From: Rhizomucor pusillus
Taxonomy: Eukaryota; Mucoromycota; Mucoromycetes; Mucorales; Lichtheimiaceae
NCBI GenBank assembly: GCA_900175165.2
Contig: FWWN02000654.1
Coordinates: forward strand, 1-40,180
DNA: 40,180 nt
Direction: 5' to 3'
A program made the position numbers and the translations under genes. Every line of letters begins with the position of its first letter. Within the stretch, counting starts at the first letter, position 1. Under the pieces are notes generated by a model, which made no database searches, had not been told where the DNA came from, and saw nothing but the letters and a program-made list of their open reading frames with translations. Of the stretch, positions 1,383 through 32,176 are shown piece after piece.

Positions 1383-3822
1383 TTAGGCTTGGTCGAAGCC
1401 TCTCCGTACACAGACGGACCTGACAGCTGCGTCTATAGTATAATGGAAACAGGGATATTTATCTTGCGGCGGGGGGAAACCATTGTTCGTGACGATAATA
1501 GAATCGTACGAGCGCAAACTTGACATCTTGGCGGGTATTGTTGTTTCGCGCTTGTTAGCGACGGGCGGCAGAGTGCCGAAGCCGAATGCAAGCAAGTTGC
1601 GGCGAACATCCACATTCAGGTTCACAAAGTGCCATTCGACCGACTGGCCCGCATAGTTATCGAGCGTTTTGCGCAGGTTGACGAGCATTTGCAAGCCTGT
1701 GGCATCCACGCGACGCACAGCACTGAAATCGAAAATGAGAGCTTGCAAGGGCGGCAGCTGCAGCCTGCCATCCCCTGCACAGATCGGTTCTTGGTTCCAC
1801 AGGAGATCTTCTTGATGCCGGCTGTTGTTACCCCTATTATCATCGTCATCGGCGTCGTCGTTATCGTCGCTGCAACCTTTGGTCCGCATCTTGACAGCAT
1901 CGAGGATGACTTCAGAGACATGAGCTGCGTTTGGAAAGAGGATGGAATCGATGGGTCGTAGAACAACCAAACCGCGAGGCAGATTTTCGAGTCTCGAGAT
2001 GAACACTGGGTCGCGCTCACACACGTACTGGCCAGGTTGCAGTCTGCCAAGGACTTGGACAGGCGGTCTTGCAAGGCGCACCAGCAGTCCAAAGACGGAT
2101 AAACCGATCGCGACGTAGATGCCCACTTCGACGTCCACAAAGAACGTGATAAGCACGGCGCAGAGCCACACACCTAGTTCGAACCAGCTAGCTGTCCACA
2201 GCTCCTTGAGGTAGGAATAGCCAGAGACGAGGTCGGACACGGCGTGAATTACGACAGCTGCCAAGGCAGCGTCCGGAATGTAATAAAACGCGGGAGTAAG
2301 CACGTACAGTGCGAGCACGACGACGGTTGCGCTGCAGAGACCTGCAAGAGGGGTTTTTGAGCCGGACCTGGCCATGATAGCTGTGCGACTAAATGCACCG
2401 GTGCTTGGGTATCCACCAAAGAATGCGACGGCAACGTTGCATACGCCAATGGCGAAAATCTCCTGATCAGGGCGTATTGTATAGTTGTACACTCTCCCAA
2501 ACGATTTCGCCACAGACACGTGCTCCAGGATCAGGATAAGAACAATGCTTGGAATGATGCCAGCGACTGTCCAGATAACAGTCATGTCGATCATCGGCAC
2601 GCCGAGAGCATCGAAACCGGCGGGCACGTCTCCAATGATGCTGAATGGGCTGTTGTTGTAGTTATTATTGTTTTCCTTTTGCTTCAATGAAGCGTTGATG
2701 ATGAAAGATATCAGGGTTGCAACAATGACAATGAGGCCGCTGCGCATGATGCTGAAATAGAAAATGGCTTTGCGTAGAAGTCCTCTCTGTCCAGAGACCT
2801 TTGAATGCTGCAACGCGCGCTCGCAGATCCATTTGATGGCATACAGAGTTATGAGAGCGATTAGCCCAAATGCAAGGTCGACCTTGGTTTCTCCTAGATG
2901 CGCAAAGAATTCATAGAATACAAGGTACGGTGACTGGTGGGTATCGATGCTGTTGGATGTGCCGGCGAGAGACGGTAGCTGCGAGAGTGTGATGGTGATT
3001 GCAGAACCTGTCATGAACCCGGCAATGGCAGGGCCTAATATGTGTAATATGGATATATTAGGTGATTATTGCTCTTATGTGCGCACGTTACATGAGAGAG
3101 ATAAGGATTTGTTCTTACCAGGTATGAAATCGACGAGAATACCGAGTCGGATGCATCCGATTCCGATTGCACAAATGCCGACAAACAGAGCTAGTGTCAC
3201 ACCTATTTGCGCTGGAGAGATGGAAGGGTCGGTATTCACAACGGTGGTAACTGCTTGACCGACAAGAAGCGAAACCGTGGCTGCAACGAAATACTTAGGA
3301 ATTGCAAGGTTGGATTATTCCTTTTTTTCTTTTACATACATATCGGACCTATGCTGATGTCCTTGGATGTGCCAAAAAGGCAATATATGGCGGCACCCGC
3401 GAAAGAGGAGCTGTCAAAAAACAAGATGATGAATATGTGAGCACACGCCAATGTAGCTATATTAATGTACTATATTTTTCAGTCAAAAAGAGACACATAC
3501 TACAATCCATACTGCGGGTCGAGATTCGCCAGTTTTGCGTAGGCCATTCCTTGGGGCACCATGACGATGCCGACAGTTACACCTGCAATGATATCTTGAA
3601 GCAGCCACTGGTACAGACCAATGTCAGTTTGAAAACGTTATATTGCTGTTGCTCTCGAGATAAAAATTTAAATACCGAGAGATTGTATCGATGTATCCAT
3701 TCAAAAACCGGAAAAAGGCTGCAGATGTAGTTACGTAGACATCGCGGTGCATCGTGTATCGCTTTTGATGCTTGTTGACGGTACGTCAAGTCGTCGTAGT
3801 CTACAATGATGACGGTGCTCAT
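1383..3822 (-). CDS. SulP family sulfate/anion permease with STAS domain
   Basis: Plasma-membrane SulP (SLC26-type) transporter, probably for sulfate. Exons (-): 3676-3822, 3501-3607, 3340-3410, 3119-3280, 1383-3034; joined length 712 codons. The N-terminus carries the family signature [13 protein letters not shown] followed by MVPQGMAYA and YGLYSSF, then many hydrophobic segments to about residue 470. A C-terminal STAS domain (about 500-650) shows [16 protein letters not shown] and [16 protein letters not shown] very acidic Asp/Asn-rich insertion lies in the STAS variable loop. All four introns are GT-AG. The start is the first ATG of the first exon, just before the conserved N-terminal helix. 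Family assignment is secure; the exact anion is inferred, since some fungal SulP proteins carry molybdate or other anions. Confidence 0.92.
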
Positions 3823-5689
3823 ATGTGGATTTGATATATGCTACAGAGCACTGTGGGGTATATGTGAATAAGATGAAGAGATTGGATGATGAGGATTGAA
3901 AATGTACGAGTGAAAGAAGAAGAAATAAAAAAAGGTGTATGATATATATAAATGTGTATGTATAAAGTGAGAAGAAAAGAAATGAGATTGCTGCTGCTGC
4001 TGCCGTTGCTGCAATGTTCAAGGGCCCGTGCGGTTTTGTTTTTGTTTTTTTTTTTTTACTATTTCGTCGCTGCTTTTATTTCAAGGGGTAGATGGGGGAC
4101 CCTAATGCAAGAGCCGCAAAGGAGAAGTGTGGAAGGGGAGGTGTGCGTAACTGTTCCAAGGCTAGCATGTCTCACTGTGTGTCTATCCTTTTATGTAGAT
4201 CCCAGTAACTCAAATGTTATAATACATACCTGTCTGTCTGTTTATCTTTTTTTTCCGTGAATGATGCATGCATGCTTATGTTTCTTCTCTCGTTTCTCTC
4301 TTAAACTTCATCGTGCTTCCACTAAACCGGTGATCTGTCTCCTTTTTTTGTTTATTCTCTGCTATCGGCCCTCCTTCCGCTTCCATCGGCACGTCTTATT
4401 TGTCTTGATTTGCCGGGCAAACTTTACGTTGCACGACTGCACACGTCTGCCGCTGCTGCTGTCAAAGGAAATCGTTCTGCTTCTTAACCGATCCCATGAG
4501 AGCTACTACTTTCGCATTGCATGCGTTGTTTTTCTTGTTCACATTGCCGTAACCAAAACCTTAAAACGATGTATATAAAAAACGCGCAAAAAGTCATGAG
4601 GAACTATCCATTCCGTTTACCCTCCCCTTTCACCCTCACTTTTTCTTTTGCTGTAATGATTTTTGACTTGCTGCTGTGCCTGACGAAATGCTACAGTATT
4701 TAATTTTTCCGTTGCAACTGAAGCTGATGCAAGACCGCACACTCAAAGTTTCCAATGCAGCCGGCGGCAACCAAATAGAACCATAAAATGTATTTTTGTT
4801 CCTTTTATCCCTCTCCCAGCTGAGCAATAGTTCTACTACAACCACCTTGCCGAGAAGAAGTTTTGGAATTATCCAACAAGTTGGCTGTTTTGTTGGCAGG
4901 TATCTTTTTAAATATATATTTCCAGATCCATCAGTAGGTACAACGATAACGAAGCGGTGGTCATCTTGCTATGAAGGAAAGTTAAAGTATTATTTTGCTA
5001 TCATACATCTTTTGTTGATAAGCTTTCCGAATGTGTGCGACTACATCGGTCATTGTTATTTCTCCTGCAGCTCCCTCTACTTTCTTTCCAGAAAGAAAAC
5101 TTCGTCATTCTTCTCAAGTATGTATATATGCATAGAATTTCTATTGACTATGTAAGCTTGCACCAAGGCTTTTGGAGGGCTTGCACGCCACCATCCAAAG
5201 TAGTGTGATTGGCTGTGCAGCGGATAGCGTTTCGGTATACCTTTTTGGCAATCTGCTCTTGCTACATATTTTCGGTGGATAGGTCGGCTTGCATAATTAT
5301 GTGTTAATGATTAATGAATGCCTTGGATGGCACATAAGCAGTAGGATTGCATTGGCGGTTTGCACGGCAGCAGCTTGGCACATGCTCCGATGCAAACATG
5401 AGTGTACCGCCCAAGTCATCAGCAAACAATATGTGAAAAAACGCAATCATTGATCACATTCATGGTGTAAGGTTTCCAATTGTCCTTTTTTCAATTTTTT
5501 TTTTAAAAATCATCTATTTACAACACGCAAGCGAGGACCTTTGGAAGGTTCCATAAAAATACAACAACTGCGATACATGCAAGACCAAATATGAAATAAT
5601 GAGAAAATGGGATACGAGGAAATACGAACAGGAAAAAAATATTTGTGCATGCCGGATCTCTCTGCCATCTTTTGTTGATTTTCGTCCAT
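3823..5689. other. Intergenic: upstream region of the SulP gene and 3' region of the synthetase
   Basis: About 1.9 kb between two minus-strand genes. The first few hundred bases beyond 3822 are rich in poly-T, CT and GA tracts, as expected of a fungal promoter and leader. Open frames at 3952-4260, 4261-4578 and 4796-5155 are T-rich, hydrophobic by composition and lack splice continuity, so I do not call them genes. No RNA gene or mobile element was seen. Confidence 0.5.
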
Positions 5690-7726
5690 CTAGATCGCTT
5701 GAGGTTGGCTGTGGATCATGTTGGGTACAGGCTCATAGATGTACTGCAAGATTTTAAGGTTATTAATTTTTCAGTTTCTATGTTGTAAGTTCATCTATTG
5801 CATGTATAACTTACGTCGCGGTAGAGCTCTTCGATCTTCATACGGACAAGGCATTTGCCGGGGACCTTTGTGTTCTTCATAAAGAAGGTGTACATCGGGT
5901 GATCCTTTGGAATCATAGCCTCCATGTGTTTGCGGACCATCTGCCAACCACGTCCATTGTGGTGCATACCGAGGACTCGGATGAGGCGTTGGAACTGAGA
6001 GTGGAAGAGGGTGTGGTAAAGGAGCTTGTATACTTCGTCCAAAGTTTCGGCGACGACGCAGCTATCAGGGATCACATCCAGCTTGGCACCGCATGACTTT
6101 TCCAGAGTTTCACCGTGAACCTTGACGCCTCCAAAGTCGCGAATGACGAAACCTTTGAGCTCGCCTGTGTTACGGTCGAAGCGGGCAAGCGTGTTTTGGC
6201 CGTGGGCTTCAAATGCTACGCCGTTCTCGAGACAGGGGGGAACAAATGCTTTGAGTGCGACCTCGATGTATCTATCCAAAAATTGGGCGCGCTTCTCCTC
6301 CGTGTCCAGCTTCCATACATGCTCTGCCAAGCTCACGTCGGTGTCGGGGCGCTGAATCTTTTCGACCAAGGCGGCAGTGACAATGATAGCGTCCTGGTTA
6401 TCTTCTTGGTACTCGAAGGCTTCGCGGAAGACCGCGCTGCAGTGCTTGGCAACGTCAAAATCGGGGTGCTTGTAAACAGCGCTTGCGAGTTCGCGTTCAA
6501 TTGTGAGGTAGTTGGGGTCATAGGTAAGGCGGGGAACAACATCTGCGGAGAATCCAGGGCCAAAGTGAGTTGTGAATGGCGTGATCGTTCGGAGAGCTGA
6601 AGAAACTTTAATGCCAAGGCAGAGCTTGAGCGAGAGACCCTTGAGGACGTCTGGGAGGGCGACCGAGCGGATGGATGTGAGACTCTGCGCGGTGATACTG
6701 TGACGTTCAGACAGAATCACGGCGTCTGGGAATTTCTGCTGAATGTTGGGTATTTGAAGCTCGTGCACGGGAACAAGGACATGTTCCGGGTATTCTGCAG
6801 GGTCCACTTGCATGGCCCGCATCAACGGAACCGCGTATTGCTCGAAATCGCCGCGTAGCTTCATGGAACTTTTGGGAACTGCAATCACGCGCAACGAAGG
6901 AGTGACCAGACTGCTCTGTCCAGGCTTGATGGGCGGCATGGGTGGGAAGCTCTTGCGTGCCTTGTGCATCTAGATAATATATATATAAAGATTAGATACT
7001 GATGGGTACCTGCAACCACGTGTCACGAGGTTCCCTTTATCGGCATTAAACTTACCGGGTGCGTAGCGTGTCCTTCCAAGATCGATTGTTCCCACTGGAC
7101 AGAGGACGATTGGAGCGTCGGCAATGGCTTGGGATGGTCGTATGCGTATGCTAAGTAATGCAAATATCTTTAATATGCTTGCGTGCATGTGCAAGAAGAA
7201 GTGCAAATAACTTACTTTGGTGGATAACGGAGCTTTCAAGTTCGGCAGCGATTTGAGAGCTAAGCTTGTCATTTACACCGTAATCCTTGGCAAAGTCGAA
7301 CCAGAGGGTAACAGCATCGTATCCATCGGATACTTGGATTTCCTTCCAGATTTGCTGAACAATCTTGTTGACGGACGCGTTGGTTGTGGAGTACGCGTTT
7401 TGGACACGATCGGAGGATGCATAGATTTGGGGAAGCATGTCCCAAGGATCAACGAGATCGACCTTGTAAGCTTGCATGCCATTCCAGAGAGTCTCCTTGG
7501 CCCCAAGCTCGGGATATCCACGCAACGGAACAGCGGCTAGAAGTTGTTGCTTTGACTTGGGGCAGCAGAGCACGCATACACCGACGGTGTTTTCAGCGCC
7601 AGCAGCATCGGTAGGAAAGAAGTACGCAGGAACGAGAGCTTCGGTGACGAGGCATGCAATTAATCGGGAGGTAGCGGCAAACTTGCCGTACAGGGCATTC
7701 TTTTCAGATACGTCAGGAACAGGCAT
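5690..7726 (-). CDS. NIS siderophore synthetase (IucA/IucC family), probable rhizoferrin synthetase
   Basis: ATP-dependent, NRPS-independent ligase. In Mucorales this family makes rhizoferrin by joining two citrates to putrescine (diaminobutane). Exons (-): 7216-7726, 7056-7150, 5815-6969, 5690-5743, giving 604 aa, normal for the family. The IucA/IucC nucleotide- and citrate-binding motif is rebuilt across an exon junction as SILEGHATHP followed by MHKAR (about residues 190-207). The C-terminal FhuF-like region contains GFVIRDFGGVKVHGE. The last exon is only 54 nt and ends in SQPQAI. The start is the ATG at 7726; the upstream in-frame stretch has no ATG. The gene stands alone. Two iron-type GATA sites lie 100 and 278 bp upstream of the start. 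The family is certain; rhizoferrin as product is inferred from the lineage, and another citrate-based siderophore is possible. Confidence 0.9.
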
Positions 7727-7825
7727 GAGGAGCAGGCAATTAAAAGAAAGGGGGAGTGAGAGCAAGGTTGTCGGCTTAAATATGTGGGTGAAGCGGAACT
7801 TGCTGACAATCCGTTCCGTGCTACT

Positions 7826-7834
7826 TTATCAGAT
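7826..7834 (-). promoter_or_regulatory. Iron-type GATA site (ATCTGATAA), proximal
   Basis: Reads ATCTGATAA on the minus strand, an exact match to ATCWGATAA, the site bound by fungal iron-responsive GATA repressors (Urbs1, SreA, Sre, Fep1 class). It lies 100 bp upstream of the synthetase start codon and in the orientation of that gene. The match is seen directly; function is inferred. Confidence 0.6.
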
Positions 7835-8003
7835 GTAACTTTTTTTTTTCTATACGTTGGTTGCACACACACACAAAAGCAAGACGCACAGCAGCGTTTC
7901 GCAATGCAAAGGGCAAGGGAAAAAGGAAGGTGCAAGGAAACACACGATCGTCCACACTAATTTTCAATTCCCGAGAGCCACCCAAAAAGAACAATTTTTT
8001 TTC

Positions 8004-8012
8004 TTATCAGAT
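8004..8012 (-). promoter_or_regulatory. Iron-type GATA site (ATCTGATAA), distal
   Basis: A second exact ATCTGATAA on the minus strand, 278 bp upstream of the same start codon and in the same orientation as the proximal site. Paired sites are typical of siderophore promoters controlled by iron-sensing GATA factors. Function is inferred from the repeat and its position. Confidence 0.6.
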
Positions 8013-10057
8013 GACTTTGGCTGTCGTCATCCCGGATCCGATCTGTCTCTCACTCATCAAATCATGGGTACTTGCACTGCTGCTTGAGATCCCGATCATC
8101 TCTCTTTCTTGCAAACGGATCACTAATCAAATATTAAATTCTTTCGGAAGCATGAAACTGTGAAACCGTACAAGCAGATCGGCTTCAGATGACTCTCCCT
8201 CCCTCCCTTCGTTACCCCCGACTGCAAGGCTAAACTATTTAAGCAGCAATATTATACATAACTTTAACACTGTGTGTATGGGATATGGATAGAGTATATA
8301 TTCTCATCCTACATACTACTTTAAATTCTAATTCTTCCAAAAGCAGCAACAATTGTAATAATCACTAAAGCAAGCAGGGAAATCTGCAGTGGGCATTCCC
8401 GTCCTTCCATCAATTCTCTAGTAGATTGCTTATTTCTTTCGCAGATCAAAATCTTTGGCAATCGGTTTATTCCACCTTTTAGATGCGAAACGGGTAGCCG
8501 AGATTGGTAAAGACTTTATCGTTATCATGATAATTCTTCCGTGTCCCATTGTCCTAGATCGCTCACGAAATAAACTGGAACATCCTTAGTGATAATTCTC
8601 TTTCCTTATCGCTGCGGAAGAACTTTTTTCTGGAGACTGAAGCGATGTGACAAATGGGTGAAGGGCCAGTTTTTTGATGGAAAAATGTAGCTAACTGATT
8701 TATTCACCTTCCACACGTGTTGTATGGTAAGAGTGTATAACACGAAATGGGCTACAAAATTAACGTTTACCTTTGGAGTTTGGCAGGCAGAACAGACACC
8801 AGTCTGAGGAACTCGACTTCAAATTTTTGCATATTCAGCATTGTATATAACTATATACGGGGTCTAGCCGATAACGGGCCTTAGGTAGACAAGCGGTAGA
8901 TTTATCAAAGCAAACTCTTTGGGTGGAGAATCTCCTATGTTGAAATGAGCGGTTAAATGTATAAGTTCTTTTGGATGGAAACATGCTGTACTATATTGGA
9001 ATGAATAGTGGGAACGCATTTATGACGGTCAAGATTTTCAATGTGTGGGTTAGGAATCTGTTTTCCGTAAGTCCCCAGTGTCTTTGCGCGAAGCGTATCG
9101 CGGCGAAGGAGCGCTCAAACGTTCAGGAAATAAAGAGTTCGACGCTACTGTTGTCGACTAAGCCGAAAATGCCGAGCCTATGTACGCGGCGACGCAGGAG
9201 CGCCAACCCCAAATCAAGAGTGTATTCCCCATCGAGCGCCGCTCCGAATAAATCGGGAATTCGATGGCGCTGTGCTTGCAATAGCGAAGCGGATGCAAAG
9301 CTGCCGAAGAATGGATGTTTATGAGGGTCAAACGAGTAGCACAACGCCTCGAATTCCCTGAAAATATTCCCAAAACGTCGAATTCATCTTGAAATTTATT
9401 GAACCTAGCACGCGAAAAGATACAACGATTTGTGCAACTTCCTTCTTTGTTGCTCATTTTTTTTTGGATCGCTAAAATCCAGAAATGTCAAGCTTCGCAC
9501 AGATTTCCATGATTTTTTCCCTGCATGCATATAAAAGCTTGGAAAGACGAATCCACTGGAGTTTCGTCTCCAACTTTATGTTATGCTTCCAAAAATACTG
9601 TGTCAATGACGTTGCAATCATTTGGTGAAACCGATCATTCGATGTTCCAGCAGACTACGCATCTACAACAGTGTCGATGCGTGCGTATTGCATGTCATAC
9701 TGCGGTATATTATCATCGAGTGCTGTCAGTTGATATATACATTACAAAGTAGATTGCATACTCGATAACAGTGGGTAATTATCGAAATCATATTTTCATT
9801 TCATTACTGTTATAACTCAGCAGAAGCTCATTTTGACACATCCGGATCGTTCTCGCCTACAATGCCTAATCTTAAGACTACGGCCCTGGAACTCAGACAA
9901 AGATGGCGAGGCTGCATGATACAGGGACAGTTCAGACACCACAGACCCTGTTGCATGTATGCTTCCCTATCCCCAATATCGACGAATCTTCAAAACCGCA
10001 AGTAATCAATAAGGTGTATCCAATGGCGTAGAGATATCATCTCCTTGCTGTTAACAG

Positions 10058-14376: not shown

Positions 14377-15971
14377 CTAATCCGCAGAAGAAGAAGCCAC
14401 GCGATGGTAGCCGCGAGGATTGCGGTAATAAATACATGCACTCAGGCAGGTTAATATAAAGATCATGAACCACATTATATGAGCTCCAAAGTGGCTGTAT
14501 ATGTATCCTGAGGCAATGGTTCCGAGCCCGGTACCGAGACCTAGGTAGACGGTACCAAGCAGACCTTGAGCGCGGGCCTTAAGAGCCGGCGGTGCGATGG
14601 TATCAGCTTCAACGACTGCGGCGCTCCACAGAAGAGAGTATGCAAGACCTAAATATAGGGTTAACCACAAGTAAAATACTGAGCACCTGTCCTATTCATT
14701 CTTACCGTGAAGCGGCTGAATTACCATGACGAGCAAGGCGCCACCGCTTGGTAGGTATGTAGCGAGCATATACGCGATACAGCGAAACATGAGAATACCG
14801 TGGGTGCAGACGATCATTTTCTGTGGACCCAGAGAATGGAATATCTGAAATCATGACGATGCAATAATGAGCATCAATCCGATAACAAGTGAAAAAAAAA
14901 TGTGTTTGCCTTTTATCCCCTTACCTGTTTGGCAAAAAAGAAGCATACAACTTCGACGCAGCTAGCAAGAGGACCCAGTAGACCAACCATGGCAGGCGTT
15001 CCGTGCAGCTCTTTTTGAACAAACAAGAACAAGAATGCGATCATGACTCCCATGACAGCGCCTAATATCGTCATTGAAAAGTAAAACCGTACTGCGTGTG
15101 GGAGGGCTAGCAAGTCCTTTGTGGATGTCGGTCGCTGCCGCTGATCAATTATCTCCTCGTCATCCTCTACCACTGCTCCCGCTGTTGCTGCTTCCTCTTC
15201 CTCTTGTTCGTTCACTGTTAGAGGCGGTTTCACTGATGTGTATCGCGGTGTAAAATCGGTGACAAGGCACGTCAGGACGAATGCCAAGACACTCGAGCAG
15301 AAAACCACAAAGATGGCGTAAGGACCCCACGCATCCATCAGAACGCCGGTCAGAAACACGGAAAGGCCAAACCCGATAGGCGTGCCCATCTTTTGCTTTC
15401 CATACAGCTCCTGCTTGCGGTCGCCGAGCACGTACAAGGTCGCGCTGTCCGTCATGATCCCGATCACGGGATACCCGAAAAACGCGTAGCCAAGATAGCC
15501 CACACTCACCAAAATGGCAGCTACCTGTTGTTGCGCTTGCTCTTGTTCCAATACTTGCACGACACTCGGTACTAAACTAACAGATAAAAAGAACTAGATA
15601 GAGCGGATATTTTTTTGTCATGTATAAGCTTCTTGCGAGTATACGAGTGCCGGGAAAAATACTTGCCACGAGTGCGATGAGCATGTTGATTGTCATTGTC
15701 TTTTTGTACGATTTCGTCTTGTCGATCCTTGACATCCATAGTGGAAATGCGACGCAGGATACAAACGGCGCTGTGTTGCAAGAGACCCTAGTTATTTAAA
15801 CAATTCTATTTTTGTTTGTGTGTGGCACTGCTACTTGCTTATAGAGTAAATGAAGCCAATGATATCCGGTTTCAAACCTAAAGCTTTGTCACAGAACGTG
15901 GCCAGGTACAACTGTGCAGAACCAACACATGCAATGCCAAATACGTTAAGCAGTTTTAGTCCCAAGAACAT
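14377..15971 (-). CDS. Major facilitator superfamily transporter (MFS_1-like)
   Basis: Predicted 12-helix membrane transporter. Exons (-): 15839-15971, 15645-15770, 14925-15571, 14706-14844, 14377-14648; 438 aa. The first half shows the MFS pattern of this family: IGFIYSI, then PFVSCVAFPLW and a basic loop, then VSVGYLGYAFFGYPVIGIMTD. The second half contains GLAYSLLWSAAV and LGLGTGLGTIASGYIY, the glycine-rich helix of the LacY-like/MFSD6-like group. An acidic loop (EQEEEEAA) joins the halves. Intron 1 is best explained by a GC donor (15771-15838), restoring YSI-TPFVS. A GT-AG alternative (15788-15834) is also in frame but inserts seven residues into a conserved turn. The join at 15572-15644 is the least certain. 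Substrate unknown. Confidence 0.82.
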
Positions 15972-16199: not shown

Positions 16200-17979
16200 C
16201 TACTTTAGCATGAGCGTCCCAGCGCCACCTAGATCACCTTCTGTCAGCTCCCCGCCATTGTCGTAAAGAGAGAGATGTGAGTAAAAGCTCTTGGGGATAG
16301 TCAGGTCCTGCTGATGGTTACTCAACGGTTGTTGTCGATGTTGATAGTGCATGTAGCCATCGACCCCGATGCTACCTCCTCCTCCGTATTGTTTTTCTTC
16401 CTGTTCTATACGTTGTCTAAAGTTTTCTTGTGTAGTTTCTGCCGTCGTGGGTTTAATGTCAATTGGAACGGAGGTGGTTGTAGGAGGATTGCACTGTGCA
16501 CTGTACGCAGCAGCAGCCATGGGATCAAAAAGAGGATGAGGATGATGCTGATCCTGTTGCTGAGGTTGCTGTTGGTGGTGTGATATTGCTTGATGTTGTT
16601 CTTGTTGCGTTTGTTGTTGTTGCTGCTGCTGCTGCGATTGTTGTTGAGAAGGAGGCGGGTTACTGTGCAGAGGATGGATCGGATTCAGCAGTTGCCCGAG
16701 GTGAGGATGGCTATCAGTCTCCACGGGAGACTGTTGCTGATGATGTAAGCTTGACCGGCGGTCGTTTGCATAGAAAGAAGCCTCTTGACCAAGATGGTTC
16801 ATGGCCAATGGCTGCGGTGCATCCTGCGCGGGAGGCAAGCTCATGATATCAGAGGAGCTATAGTTGCGAGGGAGAACCAGGGAAGAAGTGGAGTAATGCC
16901 GCTGATGCTGCGGGAAGGGCGGCTGTCTGACAGGCGACAGCATAGGAGTGCTTGGTGACGAAGACATACTCGAGGGAGATGGGATGGGATAGGCCGAATT
17001 GTACATGTTTATATTATATATGGAAGACTTTTGGTCCATATCCATACGCTGGTACATAAAGTGTTGCTGGGAAGGCATGGTCGACTGACCAAGACTCTCG
17101 TGGCCATGCAGTGACCCAACAGACATACTGCGCATAGCAGTCAAATTGCCACGGCGATCTTTTTTTGAATAATATATTATTAATTGCGAGCCATTGCAAG
17201 TACCTCTGCAGTTGATCTTACCAGCAAGGGACTCGGGGGGAGTCAAGGGACCAGCCGAAGCGGGATCGTAGGTCGATTCGACCATGGGCGGGATGCGAAA
17301 GTTCTGTTTGATCAAGAGTTCAGGTGAGATCTCGAGCGTAGCGAGTTCAGGGACAGACGAGGGCGTTCTCAATTTGCCGTGCAGAACGTCCTGGGGATGA
17401 TAGTAGGAAATCAAATGCTGTGCAACCCCGTTGACAACGATGGACATTGTCTTTTTGATCAGACCATCCTTGCGGAACTTGTATGAATCGGATAGACTTC
17501 CAACCAATTGCCTCTCACGACTGCGGTCTGGCGACATGGCGGTTGTGTCTGCGCTGAAGCTTCTCTGGCGCATATCGCCGGACGCCGCTGCTGCTGCCGC
17601 AGAGGATGACGAAGCAGAGGCAATAGAGAGGCGCTTCTCGCCAGGAGCTCGTTTGTCGAGCTCGCGATAAATAAGAAAGTTGCCGAGGATACGGGATGGA
17701 CTCCAAACACGGCCGTCCGTCCAGCGCTTGATACCTAGAAGCAAAAGGCGTTACATTAATCCATGCCGCGCACCGGGACCGTCCGCCTTCTTCGGCTGCA
17801 GCCGTACCTGACTCTCTCTCGTCAAACACAAAGACTGAACCGGACTGAATCATTCTCCTCTCCTTCTCTTGCAAGCGGCGACATATCCTCGGCAGCAGGC
17901 CTCGACGACACCCTTCGAATATGAGCAGCACATCTTGGGTACTTTCAATGAAACCATGGAATGTCTCGGTGACCAACAT
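16200..17979 (-). CDS. WOPR-family transcription factor (Gti1/Pac2, Wor1/Ryp1 type)
   Basis: Fungal master regulator family controlling morphology, sporulation or host-associated growth. Exons (-): 17808-17979, 17222-17734, 16200-17158; 547 aa. WOPRa occupies about residues 7-88 (FHGFIESTQDVLLIFEG; IKRWTDGRVWSPSRILGNFL, rebuilt over intron 1). WOPRb occupies about 134-182 (SDSYKFRKDGLIKKTMSI; LISYYHPQDVLHGKL). Between them lies a Ser/Ala-rich linker. The rest is a long disordered tail rich in Gln, His, Pro and Ser with polyQ, typical of activation regions. Intron 2 (17159-17221, 63 nt) has a good GTAAGA donor and AAG acceptor but no in-frame stop, so retention would add 21 residues. The family is certain; which branch (Gti1, Pac2 or Wor1) is not. 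Confidence 0.95.
16545..16660 (-). repeat. CAG/CAA-type repeat coding polyglutamine
   Basis: Interrupted CTG/TTG triplets on the + strand encode Gln-rich runs with His in the tail of the WOPR protein. Mixed codons (CAA and CAG) suggest an old tract that would be fairly stable. Confidence 0.75.
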
Positions 17980-27764: not shown

Positions 27765-30214
27765 ATGTCTGAAGCTGGACAAGTGCACATGTAAAGCCAA
27801 AGATACAAGAATGACATTCATGGGCAATGATGCAAACTGACGCGTCCGTCCTTGTCTTCCAGCCACAAGCTCACGACTCCTCGGGATCGCCAAGCTTTGA
27901 AGGCTGGTGCTGTCATGAACAAGTACAGCCGTATGATCACCCAGGAACCGACCGCGGGAGCCGGCCAGGCGCAGCGTGAGTAATGAGGATTCATGCGTGG
28001 GAAGTCAATCAATATACTAAGTTCCATTCGCAAAAGTGTATGCTACTGGTCTGACTGAAGAGGATATGAACAAGGCTCAAGTTGGTATTGCAAGTTTGTA
28101 AGTACCTTTGATAAACGATGGAGTACGTTGCGATATCACGCTGATGATGACGATGACGCGTTTGACAACAGTGGTTACGACGGTAATCCGTGCAACATGC
28201 ATATCAACGATCTTGCTGCCAAGATAAAGGAAGGTGTCAAAAAGGCCGGTCTCGTTGGCTACCAATTCAATACCATTGGTGTCAGCGATGCCATGCCCAT
28301 GGGCACCGCTGGCATGTCCTTCTCCTTGCCCAGTCGCGATATCATTGCCGATTCTATCGAAACAGTGAGTCTTTTTTATTTTCTTGATGCAGTAAATAGA
28401 ATTTTGATCCAATGTGCCAAAAAATTACAACTATTCAAGGTCATGAGCGCTTTGTGGTACGATGCGAATGTATCTATTCCTGGCTGTGACAAGAACATGC
28501 CTGGTTGTATGATGGCTATTGCTCGTCTTAATCGCCCTGCAATCGTAGTCTACGGTGGTACCATGAAGAAGGGCCGAGGAACACTCGGTGCATGTGCCAA
28601 TCGAGAAATTGATATTGCCAATGCGCTGGAGTGCAATGGTGAATACATCAGTGGAAAGATCACCGCTGATGAACGCAAAGATATCATCCGTCACGCGTGC
28701 CCTGGTGCTGGTGCATGTGGTGGAATGTAAGATAGTTGAGCAGATTTCTTTTGGAGCATATAGCTGATCAATTCTATCCTATTTCCATCATGCTCTTATT
28801 GCAGGTTTACTGCCAACACGAGTAGGTTTCTTTAATGCATCATTCGTTTCCAAGACCAAGGTACTCATCAAAAATCATGTCATACAGTGTCCAGCGCTAT
28901 CGAAGCCTTGGGTATGTCTTTACCTTACAGCTCCTCCATCCCTGCCACCGATCCCGCCAAAATTCAAGAATGTCTCAAAATTGGTCCTGCTATCCGCAAT
29001 TTGCTTGAAAAGGACATCAAACCTAGCGATATTCTCACCCGCAAGGCTTTTGAGAATGCATTAACCTTAATCATTGTTCTTGGTGGTAAGTAAAGGGGAT
29101 GCTTTACTCTTTTATACAATAATGCTGATTTGCATTTAATTTGTGGTCGCGCAGGTTCCACAAACGCAGTGCTGCACATGCTAGCCATGGCAAAGGCTGC
29201 CAATGTCCCATTGACCATTGATGATATCCAGGAAATCTCCAGCAAGACCCCGTTTTTGGCTAATTTGCGACCTAGTGGCCGCTATGTAATGGAAGACCTC
29301 CATGCCATTGGTGGCACCCCTGCTGTCCTCAAATACCTCTACGAGAATGGCATGATCCATGGCGACTGTATGACCGTCACTGGTAAAACTCTTGCCGAGA
29401 ATCTCCAAGAAGTCGAAGGACTACCCGACGGTCAGGATATCATTCGGCCCTTGTCGAATCCCGTCAAACCGACTGGCCATCTTACCATTCTCCGTGGCAA
29501 CTTGGCTCCAGAGGTAAACAGACTAAAGTATAGCTCTAGTCACAAGTATAAAATCTGAGCAATTCCTTTGCAGGGTGCTGTTGCCAAGATTACTGGCAAG
29601 GAAGGTTTGGAATTCACGGGCGTCGCTCGTGTATTCGATGAAGAGGACCAGATCTTTGAAGCCTTGGAACAAAAGCGAATTCCTAAGGGTTCAGTCGTCG
29701 TCGTTCGATACCAAGGTCCAAAGGGCGGTCCTGGTATGCCGGAAATGCGTAAGTTACATTCAATTTTTTCTTCCTACATTTTGCGCAGTACACTGATGCT
29801 TTCGCTGCTTAGTGAAACCGACTGCTGCCATCATGGGTGCCGGCTTGGGCAAGGACGTTGCACTCATCACCGACGGCCGTTTCTCCGGTGCATCCCACGT
29901 AAGTGTCACTCTTGCTATCATCTCGACTATCCAGTTTGGGAGTCTTACAATCCCTTATTTTAATGTAGGGCTTCATTATCGGTCATATTTGCCCTGAAGC
30001 ACAAGTAGGTGGGCCTATTGCTCTCGTGCAAGACGGAGATCAGATCACTATTGATGCAAAGACTCGAACCATTCAAGTCCATATTTCTGATGAAGAAATG
30101 GGGAAGAGAAGGGCCGCCTGGGTTCCCAAGCCTGTCAAATATACCAAAGGTGCTTTGGCACGATACGCAAAGACGGTCAAGAGTGCCAGCGAAGGCGCCG
30201 TTACAGACGAATAA
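27765..30214 (+). CDS. ILV3: Dihydroxy-acid dehydratase (branched-chain amino-acid synthesis)
   Basis: Fe-S enzyme converting dihydroxy-isovalerate and dihydroxy-methylvalerate to the 2-keto acids of valine and isoleucine. Exons (+): 27765-27790, 27863-27975, 28037-28097, 28172-28364, 28440-28726, 28805-28821, 28888-29085, 29155-29513, 29574-29748, 29813-29898, 29969-30214; 586 aa. Diagnostic motifs: [37 protein letters not shown] (rebuilt over a 17-nt exon), [40 protein letters not shown]-type [13 protein letters not shown] and [11 protein letters not shown]. The three cluster cysteines are present. The N-terminus (MSEAGQVHI) is not an obvious mitochondrial presequence, unlike yeast Ilv3. 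The stretch before GNPC reads SFGYD where most fungi have an aromatic WYE/WWS. Identification is certain. Confidence 0.96.
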
Positions 30215-30259: not shown

Positions 30260-31740
30260 CTACTGTGCAAAGACTTCTCCTCCCTGTTCTCCAACAAATG
30301 CCTTGATTTTTCGCACTTGATTGTTCCATTCTTCCAGTTGTCGTCGCATGCCATCAATCTGCTCCTTGTCCAATACACGCGGCTGTACCCAAGTGACCGT
30401 CACGAGCTGATCGACTTGATCGATAGAACCTCTGATGAGCTTCAGGGACAGCGCTTTCATAACAAGATGCTCCACCTGTGGAGATATGCATTCATCAGAA
30501 AAGGAAGATGAATTCGGGACTACGCATTTACCTCGTCAATATGCAATCGAGTCTCTGCTGCAATATCTGAGAATGGAATGACGCGGTTGTCGCTGGAGCG
30601 TCTAAAGACAGCTTCGATGAGGGACATGAGGCATATTTTATGACTCAGCTTTTCTGCGTTCTGTTGCAACAATGGCTACAATAGATAATGTTAGTTCCTT
30701 TATTTGCCACCTGCTCTCATTTTTTGGATCCGGTCCTACCTGTTTGCTAAAGTGAGGAGCTAGTGCCTCGTATTTACCAATATCTCCACTGTTAAACGCA
30801 AACAAAAGCGAGCGAAGCCAGCTGTGTTCTGTACTGCTTAGAGAATCAAGGATCGGATGCATCAACTAGATTGAAAATAAAAAAATACGTCAGCTTCTTG
30901 TTGGCCAAATCCAGAAAACGAGTAAATCCACTGACCAGTTCACCAAAGTTGTAGATCATTTCTCCCAACAATGCCGAGATTGCCAAATCATATGCTCTTT
31001 CCCTCTTTTCTTTGTCTGACAAATCATCGATATTTACGCAGGCGAGATATAACAGTGCGCTCTTGTAGTACTGTGCATATTCAGCCTTGACTTTGTAATA
31101 CTCGGCGCTGACGCGGTAGAAGCTGGCGTAAATGACGGTCTCCACGCTATCAAACTGGTCCAAGATCTTTCCGGATTCATCGATTGCTTTTTGGACTTCG
31201 TCATATTCGTTCAGTTGCAGTTTGAAATGTGCTGTCTCCATCAATGCAAGAACGTAGACATCCTTGGACGCATCGGTATCGACTTTGGCGGTGATTTCGT
31301 TCAGAAAGCTAACTGATTCTTGCACACCTAAATTACATATTATTAATTGCACTGAGCTGTTGTCAATATGCGTGTGTGACACTGTACTGGGACAATGGGT
31401 GGCAGCCTTCAAGACTATTGACACGAGCGACAGCTTGTTGATCTTGCTCTCCCAGTCTGCAATGAACTTTTGATAGATGGGAATTTGGTGCGGTGCTGAC
31501 TCGGGCTTTTCAAAGAACTCGAGTATGGATTGCGTCAATTGATGCCACAGTCTTTGGAAAGACGTGGGCTTGTAAGTAACACGGCGGTGGGAGCCTACAG
31601 AGAAACACAACGCAGACTCACTTTCTTTCATATAAATCTTCAAAAGTGGTAAAGTAATGTTGAATAGAGGGAGCAGCCTTTTTGCGTTCCTTGTTGAGGA
31701 AGCCAGGTACGTCAAAATCCACGTCCATTTGCTGTGCCAT
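30260..31740 (-). CDS. RPN9: 26S proteasome lid subunit Rpn9 (PSMD13)
   Basis: PCI-domain scaffold of the proteasome lid. Exons (-): 31622-31740, 31388-31551, 30936-31327, 30740-30865, 30532-30675, 30260-30475; 386 aa, matching the family. Family features in order: DVDFDVPGFLNKERKK start, WHQLTQSILEF, IDESGKILDQFDSVETVIYA, YAQYYKSALLYLACVNI, ALLGEMIYNFGEL, TEHSWLRSLLFAFNSGDI, and the winged-helix end of the PCI domain (SLIEAVFRRSSDNRVIPFSD to VEHLVMKALSLKLIRGSIDQ). It ends RQLEEWNNQVRKIKAFVGEQ and a short tail. The 60-nt intron 31328-31387 has no in-frame stop, so it could be read through. The stop lies 45 bp from that of the convergent dehydratase gene. Confidence 0.95.
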
Positions 31741-32176
31741 CGTGTGCGTATAACAAGTTCAGGTCAAAGAACTACTCGAGGCAGGATTGCGCGTCGCAGG
31801 TCTTGAGGCTCCGACATGATCAGATTGAAACTGTCAACTCTACAAACTTAAAAGTTGCCAAGGTACGTAGAAAGCCCCAGTGCAAATTACCAAATACAAT
31901 AAGAAAAGGATGCAAATAAGAAGTGCAGATATTATAGCAATTGTATCAATACAGATAGATACTCCCAAATGAAAAAAGAAAAGCTTTGTATGCGGCGAAT
32001 ACATAACAGTTCCGCACACTACTTTGCCATACATATCCACATGCCATCCTTACATATATCAGCAATTTTAGTTCTTGAATAGCTTTGTTTTTTGTGGCAA
32101 GTTTTTCTTATGTAAAGAAAAAAAAGGAGAAAATAAAGAATAATAAGCTGTAGATACCGTTATTTTGTGTTTTTCG
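31741..32176. other. Intergenic: RPN9 upstream region
   Basis: About 440 bp between two minus-strand genes. It must hold the RPN9 promoter and the 3' end of the VPS9 gene. A-rich stretches with AATAAAG-like sequence near 32130 could be processing signals. I could not identify a proteasome-associated control element with confidence. Confidence 0.45.

What the first reader, a model, noticed from the sequence alone, without database searches (positions are those of the whole stretch)
7826..8012. Paired perfect iron-type GATA sites upstream of the siderophore synthetase
Two identical ATCTGATAA sequences (minus strand) lie 100 and 278 bp from the start codon, both in the gene's orientation. ATCWGATAA is the known site of iron-sensing GATA repressors in asco- and basidiomycetes (Urbs1, SreA, Sre, Fep1). 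Two exact 9-mers within 190 bp of each other is well beyond chance. It implies that a mucoralean fungus may use the same iron-repression circuit for its rhizoferrin-type enzyme.
Basis: partly seen in the sequence, partly recalled or inferred. Interest (0 to 1): 0.75.

Follow-up and report, generated by a model that had tools for sequence, protein, structure and literature searches.

The report
Iron-repressor sites before siderophore gene
Two perfect binding sites for a known type of fungal iron-sensing repressor sit in front of a siderophore-making gene of a mucoralean fungus, and the same sites stand before several other iron-uptake genes and the repressor's own gene, so this early-branching fungus probably uses the iron switch known from other fungi.

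Summary
In detail: two ATCTGATAA sites, in the gene's orientation, lie 99 and 277 bases before the start codon of an IucA/IucC (NIS) siderophore synthetase. Alone they prove little: 28 of 100 shuffled windows hold two or more matches, and about three pairs this close are expected genome-wide. ATCWGATAA occurs within 500 bp upstream of 7 of 14 iron genes gathered by family (0.17 expected) and of 0 of 34 control genes. The seven are the window's synthetase, one FTR1, one FET3, two ferric reductases, a siderophore transporter and a GATA factor with two fingers and the C-X5-C-X8-C-X2-C motif of Fep1/SreA/Urbs1. Among 64 three-base prefixes of WGATAA, ATC ranks first by far. Iron limitation induces the same kinds of gene in Lichtheimia (PMC4133162), and the motif was already reported in silico before Mucor lusitanicus rfs (PMC9226013). 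Half of the iron genes lack the site; binding, iron response and conservation in relatives were not tested. Verdict: a well-supported member of a known circuit; its extent in Mucorales is the new part.

The parts
7826..7834 (-). ATCTGATAA, proximal iron-type GATA site, 99 bases before the ATG
8004..8012 (-). ATCTGATAA, distal iron-type GATA site, 277 bases before the ATG
7727..8226 (-). 500-bp upstream region scored as the promoter; its only GATA/TATC cores are the two sites
7216..7726 (-). NIS synthetase exon 1 (start codon at 7726); end read by eye from splice consensus
   Evidence: residues 1 to about 170 align with homologues
7056..7150 (-). predicted exon 2, read by eye
   Evidence: splice consensus only
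5815..6969 (-). exon 3: IucA_IucC (PF04183) and FhuF (PF06276) domains
   Evidence: boundaries by eye
5690..5743 (-). predicted short last exon with stop codon, read by eye; the model gives about 604 aa
   Evidence: many named Mucorales homologues are about 610-650 aa

Best explanation
The two sites are operators of an iron-responsive GATA repressor of the Fep1/SreA/Urbs1 type, most likely the protein encoded on contig C109. When iron is plentiful the factor, loaded through its Cys-rich motif, would bind ATCWGATAA before the siderophore synthetase, FTR1, FET3, two ferric reductases, the siderophore transporter and its own gene, and shut them down; iron lack would release them. Shown: sites, enrichment, a regulator gene with the defining anatomy, a site before that gene. 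Inferred: binding, iron dependence, direction (repression) and rhizoferrin as the product.
For: Within 500 bp upstream, 7 of 14 iron genes have ATCWGATAA (binomial p 1.4e-10 at the genome-wide rate; without the window gene 6 of 13, p 5.7e-9, or 1.7e-5 at four times that rate). Controls: 0 of 34, Fisher 4.7e-5, including 0 of 7 other multicopper oxidases and 0 of 12 other GATA genes with long open frames. 0 of 3000 scrambled 9-mers reach 8 sites or 7 promoters at 300 bp (the best scramble reaches 5 promoters); ATC tops 64 prefixes of WGATAA with 7 promoters against 2 for the next. In an unguided 8-mer count TCTGATAA has the joint highest number (6 of 14 promoters, 1 of 44 controls), tied with an A-run word found in 4 controls. 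The C109 protein has two GATA fingers and CPGDGHCNGTGGSASCAGC; 112 of the 120 homologues listed share both features. In Lichtheimia corymbifera iron limitation raises one of four FTR1, two of three ferric reductases, the siderophore transporter and a GATA-type factor, and expression data pointed to an IucA/IucC gene (PMC4133162 section 15). Mucor lusitanicus rfs falls with Fe2+ (PMC9226013 passages).
Against: Seven of 14 iron genes lack the site within 500 bp: the second NIS synthetase (C258), the divergent FTR1 and FET3 on C44 (with a tandem pair inside a FET3 intron instead), three ferric-reductase-like genes and the C32 GATA paralogue. The genome holds 609 sites, more than an iron regulon needs. 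Sites near non-iron genes: a close pair on C14, where I recognised no iron gene (only weak kelch matches below cut-off); one on C3 between two MFS genes that look like drug transporters; several around a two-finger GATA gene without the Cys motif on C22, next to a ferric reductase; one 242 bp before the finger exon of a GATA gene on C196 that was not among the controls. With the shorter word ATCWGATA 2 of 34 controls match at 500 bp. No expression, binding or cross-species promoter data were available. With 39 GATA-domain matches in the genome another GATA factor could bind.
Confidence: 0.8

Rival explanations
1. The sites are bound by another GATA factor (nitrogen, light or development), so the gene is not under iron control through them.
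For: 39 GATA-domain matches in the genome; 609 sites genome-wide, 2.3 times the reversed word; sites also near some non-iron genes.
Against: General GATA factors are held to need only HGATAR (recalled); here the ATC prefix is what is enriched before iron genes, and 7 other copper oxidases and 12 other GATA genes have no site.
Confidence: 0.1
2. The factor is bound there but acts as activator or mixed regulator in low iron, as reported for Cryptococcus Cir1 (recalled).
For: A GATA-type factor of L. corymbifera rises under iron limitation (PMC4133162), which suits an activator as well as a self-repressed repressor. Sequence alone cannot give direction.
Against: The C109 protein has the Cys motif described for the repressor Fep1; M. 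lusitanicus rfs falls with Fe2+.
Confidence: 0.12
3. The pair is a chance match with no function.
For: 28 of 100 shuffles of the window hold two or more matches; about 2.9 pairs within 190 bp expected in the genome.
Against: The same word before six further iron genes and none of 34 controls.
Confidence: 0.05

Closest known systems
SreA of Aspergillus fumigatus and its ATCWGATAA motif (PMC2610380, passages seen)
   Same: Same nine-base motif, over-represented upstream of iron genes (5.4-fold there); overlapping kinds of target.
   Different: Different siderophore enzymes (hydroxamate synthesis there, NIS synthetase here); binding and regulation are untested here.
Urbs1 (Ustilago maydis) and Fep1 (Schizosaccharomyces pombe), binding sites as cited in PMC2610380
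   Same: Sites at sid1, str1 and fio1-fip1 fit the motif; two fingers and Cys-X5-Cys-X8-Cys-X2-Cys (described for Pichia Fep1, abstract start of PMC4992955) match the C109 protein.
   Different: Dikarya; here a mucoralean fungus.
rfs of Mucor lusitanicus (PMC9226013, passages seen)
   Same: Siderophore synthetase with an ATCWGATAA element in its promoter, expression lowered by Fe2+.
   Different: In silico, one gene; no regulator gene, regulon or background test in the passages seen; its Table S4 was not seen.
Lichtheimia corymbifera iron-limitation RNA-seq (PMC4133162, section 15 and passages seen)
   Same: The same kinds of gene respond: one FTR1, two ferric reductases, siderophore transporter, GATA factor, IucA/IucC gene.
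   Different: No promoter motif analysis of these genes in what I saw; orthology gene by gene was not tested here.

Membership tests
Fep1/SreA/Urbs1 iron-responsive GATA factors (C109 protein) | Two GATA zinc fingers | tested here: met
Fep1/SreA/Urbs1 iron-responsive GATA factors (C109 protein) | C-X5-C-X8-C-X2-C between the fingers | tested here: met
   CPGDGHCNGTGGSASCAGC
Fep1/SreA/Urbs1 iron-responsive GATA factors (C109 protein) | Binds iron or an iron-sulfur cluster; represses in high iron | not testable with these tools
   needs biochemistry
Fep1/SreA/Urbs1 iron-responsive GATA factors (C32 paralogue) | C-X5-C-X8-C-X2-C between the fingers | tested here: not met
   two fingers, but RCIAPKPSNPCDKCTGICEC between them
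SreA-type target promoter (window synthetase) | ATCWGATAA in the upstream region | tested here: met
   two copies
SreA-type regulon | Motif enriched upstream of iron genes over background | tested here: met
   7 of 14 against 0 of 34
SreA-type regulon | Motif kept in the same promoters of relatives | not testable with these tools
   I found no collection with fungal genome DNA other than this genome
SreA-type regulon | Genes respond to iron in this organism | not testable with these tools
   seen only for relatives in papers
NIS siderophore synthetase (rhizoferrin type) | IucA_IucC and FhuF domains | tested here: met
NIS siderophore synthetase (rhizoferrin type) | Groups with Mucorales synthetases; makes rhizoferrin | tested here: inconclusive
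   places among Mucorales proteins, next to the Lichtheimia/Dichotomocladium/Zychaea group (support 94/94); product untested

The most novel reading that the evidence does not exclude
A complete iron switch (Fep1-type regulator with a site before its own gene, the same operator word, and reductive uptake, siderophore transport and siderophore synthesis as targets) is older than the split between Mucoromycota and Dikarya, and each lineage plugged its own siderophore enzymes into it: a bacterial-type NIS synthetase in Mucorales. The three perfect sites before an MFSD1-like transporter on C18, a family whose named relatives in our list are all early-branching fungi, would then mark a candidate rhizoferrin or iron transporter.
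Probability: 0.5. Interest if true: 0.6.

Novelty: new member of a known kind. Interest (0 to 1): 0.5.

Why it matters
How Mucorales control iron uptake is poorly known although iron is central to mucormycosis; a 2025 Mucor paper still points to yeast Aft1/Aft2 as the model (PMC12380104, passages). A site-defined regulon names the regulator and its likely targets and suggests that the fungal iron switch is older than the siderophores it now controls.

Tried and rejected
Window-level statistics: not significant alone. Reversed-word control: a 2.3-fold genome-wide excess is too broad to mean iron. Control genes: 47 rows were made, 3 dropped because the held stretch was too short (none had a site in what was held), 44 kept; 3 of 44 have ATCWGATAA, all three in loci (L035, L046) that I had fetched for their clustered sites. 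Leaving out the loci fetched for clusters leaves 34, with 0 hits. The control starts are first in-frame Met codons, so some are not true gene starts. Of the GATA genes, 13 with long open frames were tried and 12 used (one had no ATG); a GATA gene on C196 with a site 242 bp before its finger exon was not among them. The iron list was set by family searches, but I had seen some of the sites before the formal test, and I split two FET3-type oxidases from seven others by reading (one sits beside FTR1); those seven served as controls. Of seven TRI12 matches I read five genes and judged one (C134) a siderophore transporter from memory of such sequences; C110 and C229 were not read. Mitoferrin-like C8 and MFSD1-like C18 also have sites but were found through site clusters and are left out of the test. 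PF04120 found nothing anywhere (uninformative). The heme oxygenase and VIT1 promoters were sought and not obtained. Sigma-70 scan: not meaningful for a fungus. Species name: not established.

Full report
What is there. Two ATCTGATAA words lie on the minus strand at 7826-7834 and 8004-8012, the only ATCWGATAA in the window. They stand 99 and 277 bases before the ATG at 7726 of a minus-strand gene, in its orientation. In the 500 bp before the ATG they hold the only GATA or TATC cores. The gene encodes an IucA_IucC plus FhuF protein; by splice consensus read by eye it has four exons and about 604 residues. Its best named relatives are Mucorales NIS synthetases (72% identity to Apophysomyces over the third exon; 99% to an unnamed assembly), and it groups next to Lichtheimia, Dichotomocladium, Zychaea and Circinella (support 94/94).

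Chance. The word occurs 609 times in 24.45 Mb; its reverse 267 times. A 500-bp promoter holds two by chance with P = 7.7e-5, and 6 of 20,000 shuffles of this promoter do; but about 2.9 pairs this close are expected in the whole genome, and 28 of 100 window shuffles hold two or more. The pair alone is thus suggestive only. In the first 100 of the 609 places (all that were listed) two adjacent pairs lie within 190 bp, 0.47 expected: one before the MFSD1-like gene on C18, one on C14 without a recognised iron gene.

The regulator. Of 39 GATA-domain matches, the open frame on C109 (456 aa) has two fingers with CPGDGHCNGTGGSASCAGC between them, the C-X5-C-X8-C-X2-C motif described for Pichia Fep1 (PMC4992955, abstract start in the listing). 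Of the 120 homologues listed (of 3569 found), 112 have two fingers and the motif; one is named URBS1 and others Suppressor of ferric uptake 1 by their sources. A paralogue on C32 has two fingers but an altered Cys stretch. The C109 gene has ATCTGATAA at -174.

The regulon test. Fourteen genes were gathered by family search: two NIS synthetases, two FTR1, two FET3, five ferric-reductase-like genes, one siderophore transporter, the C109 factor and its C32 paralogue. Seven have ATCWGATAA within 500 bp: the window synthetase (2), FTR1 C91 (1), FET3 C239 (2, and five of the shorter ATCWGATA), reductases C22 and C292 (1 each), C109 (1) and transporter C134 (1). Nine sites were seen, 0.17 expected. 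The seven without are NIS C258, FTR1 C44, FET3 C44, reductases C337, C192 and C23, and the C32 paralogue. FTR1 C44 and FET3 C44 are divergent neighbours, so the 14 promoters are not fully independent. Controls from loci not chosen for clustered sites: 0 of 34; with the others, 3 of 44. If the seven other copper oxidases were counted as iron genes the figure would be 7 of 21. With the shorter word the controls give 2 of 34 at 500 bp. The ATC prefix is specific: 7 promoters against 2 for the next of 64 prefixes (300 bp).

Against. Half of the iron genes lack the site. C44 carries two ATCAGATAA, 13 bp apart, inside a FET3 intron rather than in the promoter. Some sites lie near genes with no known link to iron (C14, C3, C196, and a GATA gene on C22 next to a ferric reductase). 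All this is one genome; no promoter of a relative could be read.

Outside evidence. In L. corymbifera, iron limitation by BPS raised one of four FTR1 (another fell, two were constitutive), two of three ferric reductases, the siderophore transporter, one of two heme oxygenases and a GATA-type factor, and expression data pointed the authors to an IucA/IucC gene (PMC4133162 section 15). This agrees in kind with the present pattern (one of two FTR1, two of five reductase-like genes, synthetase, transporter, GATA factor); orthology was not tested. In M. lusitanicus an in-silico ATCWGATAA is reported for rfs, and rfs falls with Fe2+ (PMC9226013 passages). A Fep1-like sequence is noted in Rhizophagus (PMC4765768, one passage). 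Searches for a tested GATA iron circuit in Mucorales showed none in the titles and abstract starts listed; PMC4133162 proposes a GATA factor from expression. Only open-licence papers were searched, and four of the lists were cut (20 of 28, 15 of 260, 15 of 56, 15 of 48).

Reading. The sites most likely are operators of the C109 repressor. Steps shown: sites, enrichment, regulator anatomy, a site before the regulator gene. Steps inferred: binding, iron sensing, repression, rhizoferrin as product.

Noticed in passing
L042 (G000:C18:5500-14500), sites at 4170, 4334, 4687: Three perfect sites (-90, -254, -607) before an MFSD1-like MFS gene; the named ones of its 94 listed relatives are all early-branching fungi (only part of the candidates was scored).
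   Followed up: partly
L048 (G000:C8:121000-129500), site at 3363: Mitoferrin-like carrier (name from memory; Mito_carr by Pfam) with ATCTGATAA at -243 and ATCTGATAT at -192.
   Followed up: partly
L040 (G000:C44:68000-76000), 2515-2536: Tandem ATCAGATAA pair inside a predicted FET3 intron, while the shared FTR1/FET3 promoter has none.
   Followed up: partly
L006 (G000:C32): Paralogue of the Fep1-type factor with two fingers but an altered Cys-rich stretch; might be iron-blind.
   Followed up: no
L035 (G000:C22:103500-110500): Five sites in 3.4 kb around a ferric reductase and a neighbouring two-finger GATA gene that lacks the Cys motif; a second regulator under the same control is possible.
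   Followed up: no
window 9274-9315 and L075 1005-1046: A 42-base stretch, 88% identical, upstream of both the synthetase and the siderophore transporter; perhaps a dispersed repeat.
   Followed up: no
L050/L069 (G000:C258): Second, divergent NIS synthetase without iron-type sites; on a long branch with Syncephalastrum in the tree.
   Followed up: partly
window 1383-3065, 14913-15593, 16200-17750, 28059-28730, 30846-31763: Window neighbours by Pfam: a sulfate permease, an MFS_1-like transporter, a Gti1/Pac2 regulator, a dihydroxy-acid dehydratase and a PSD13 proteasome subunit; no further siderophore gene among the ten ORFs scanned.
   Followed up: partly
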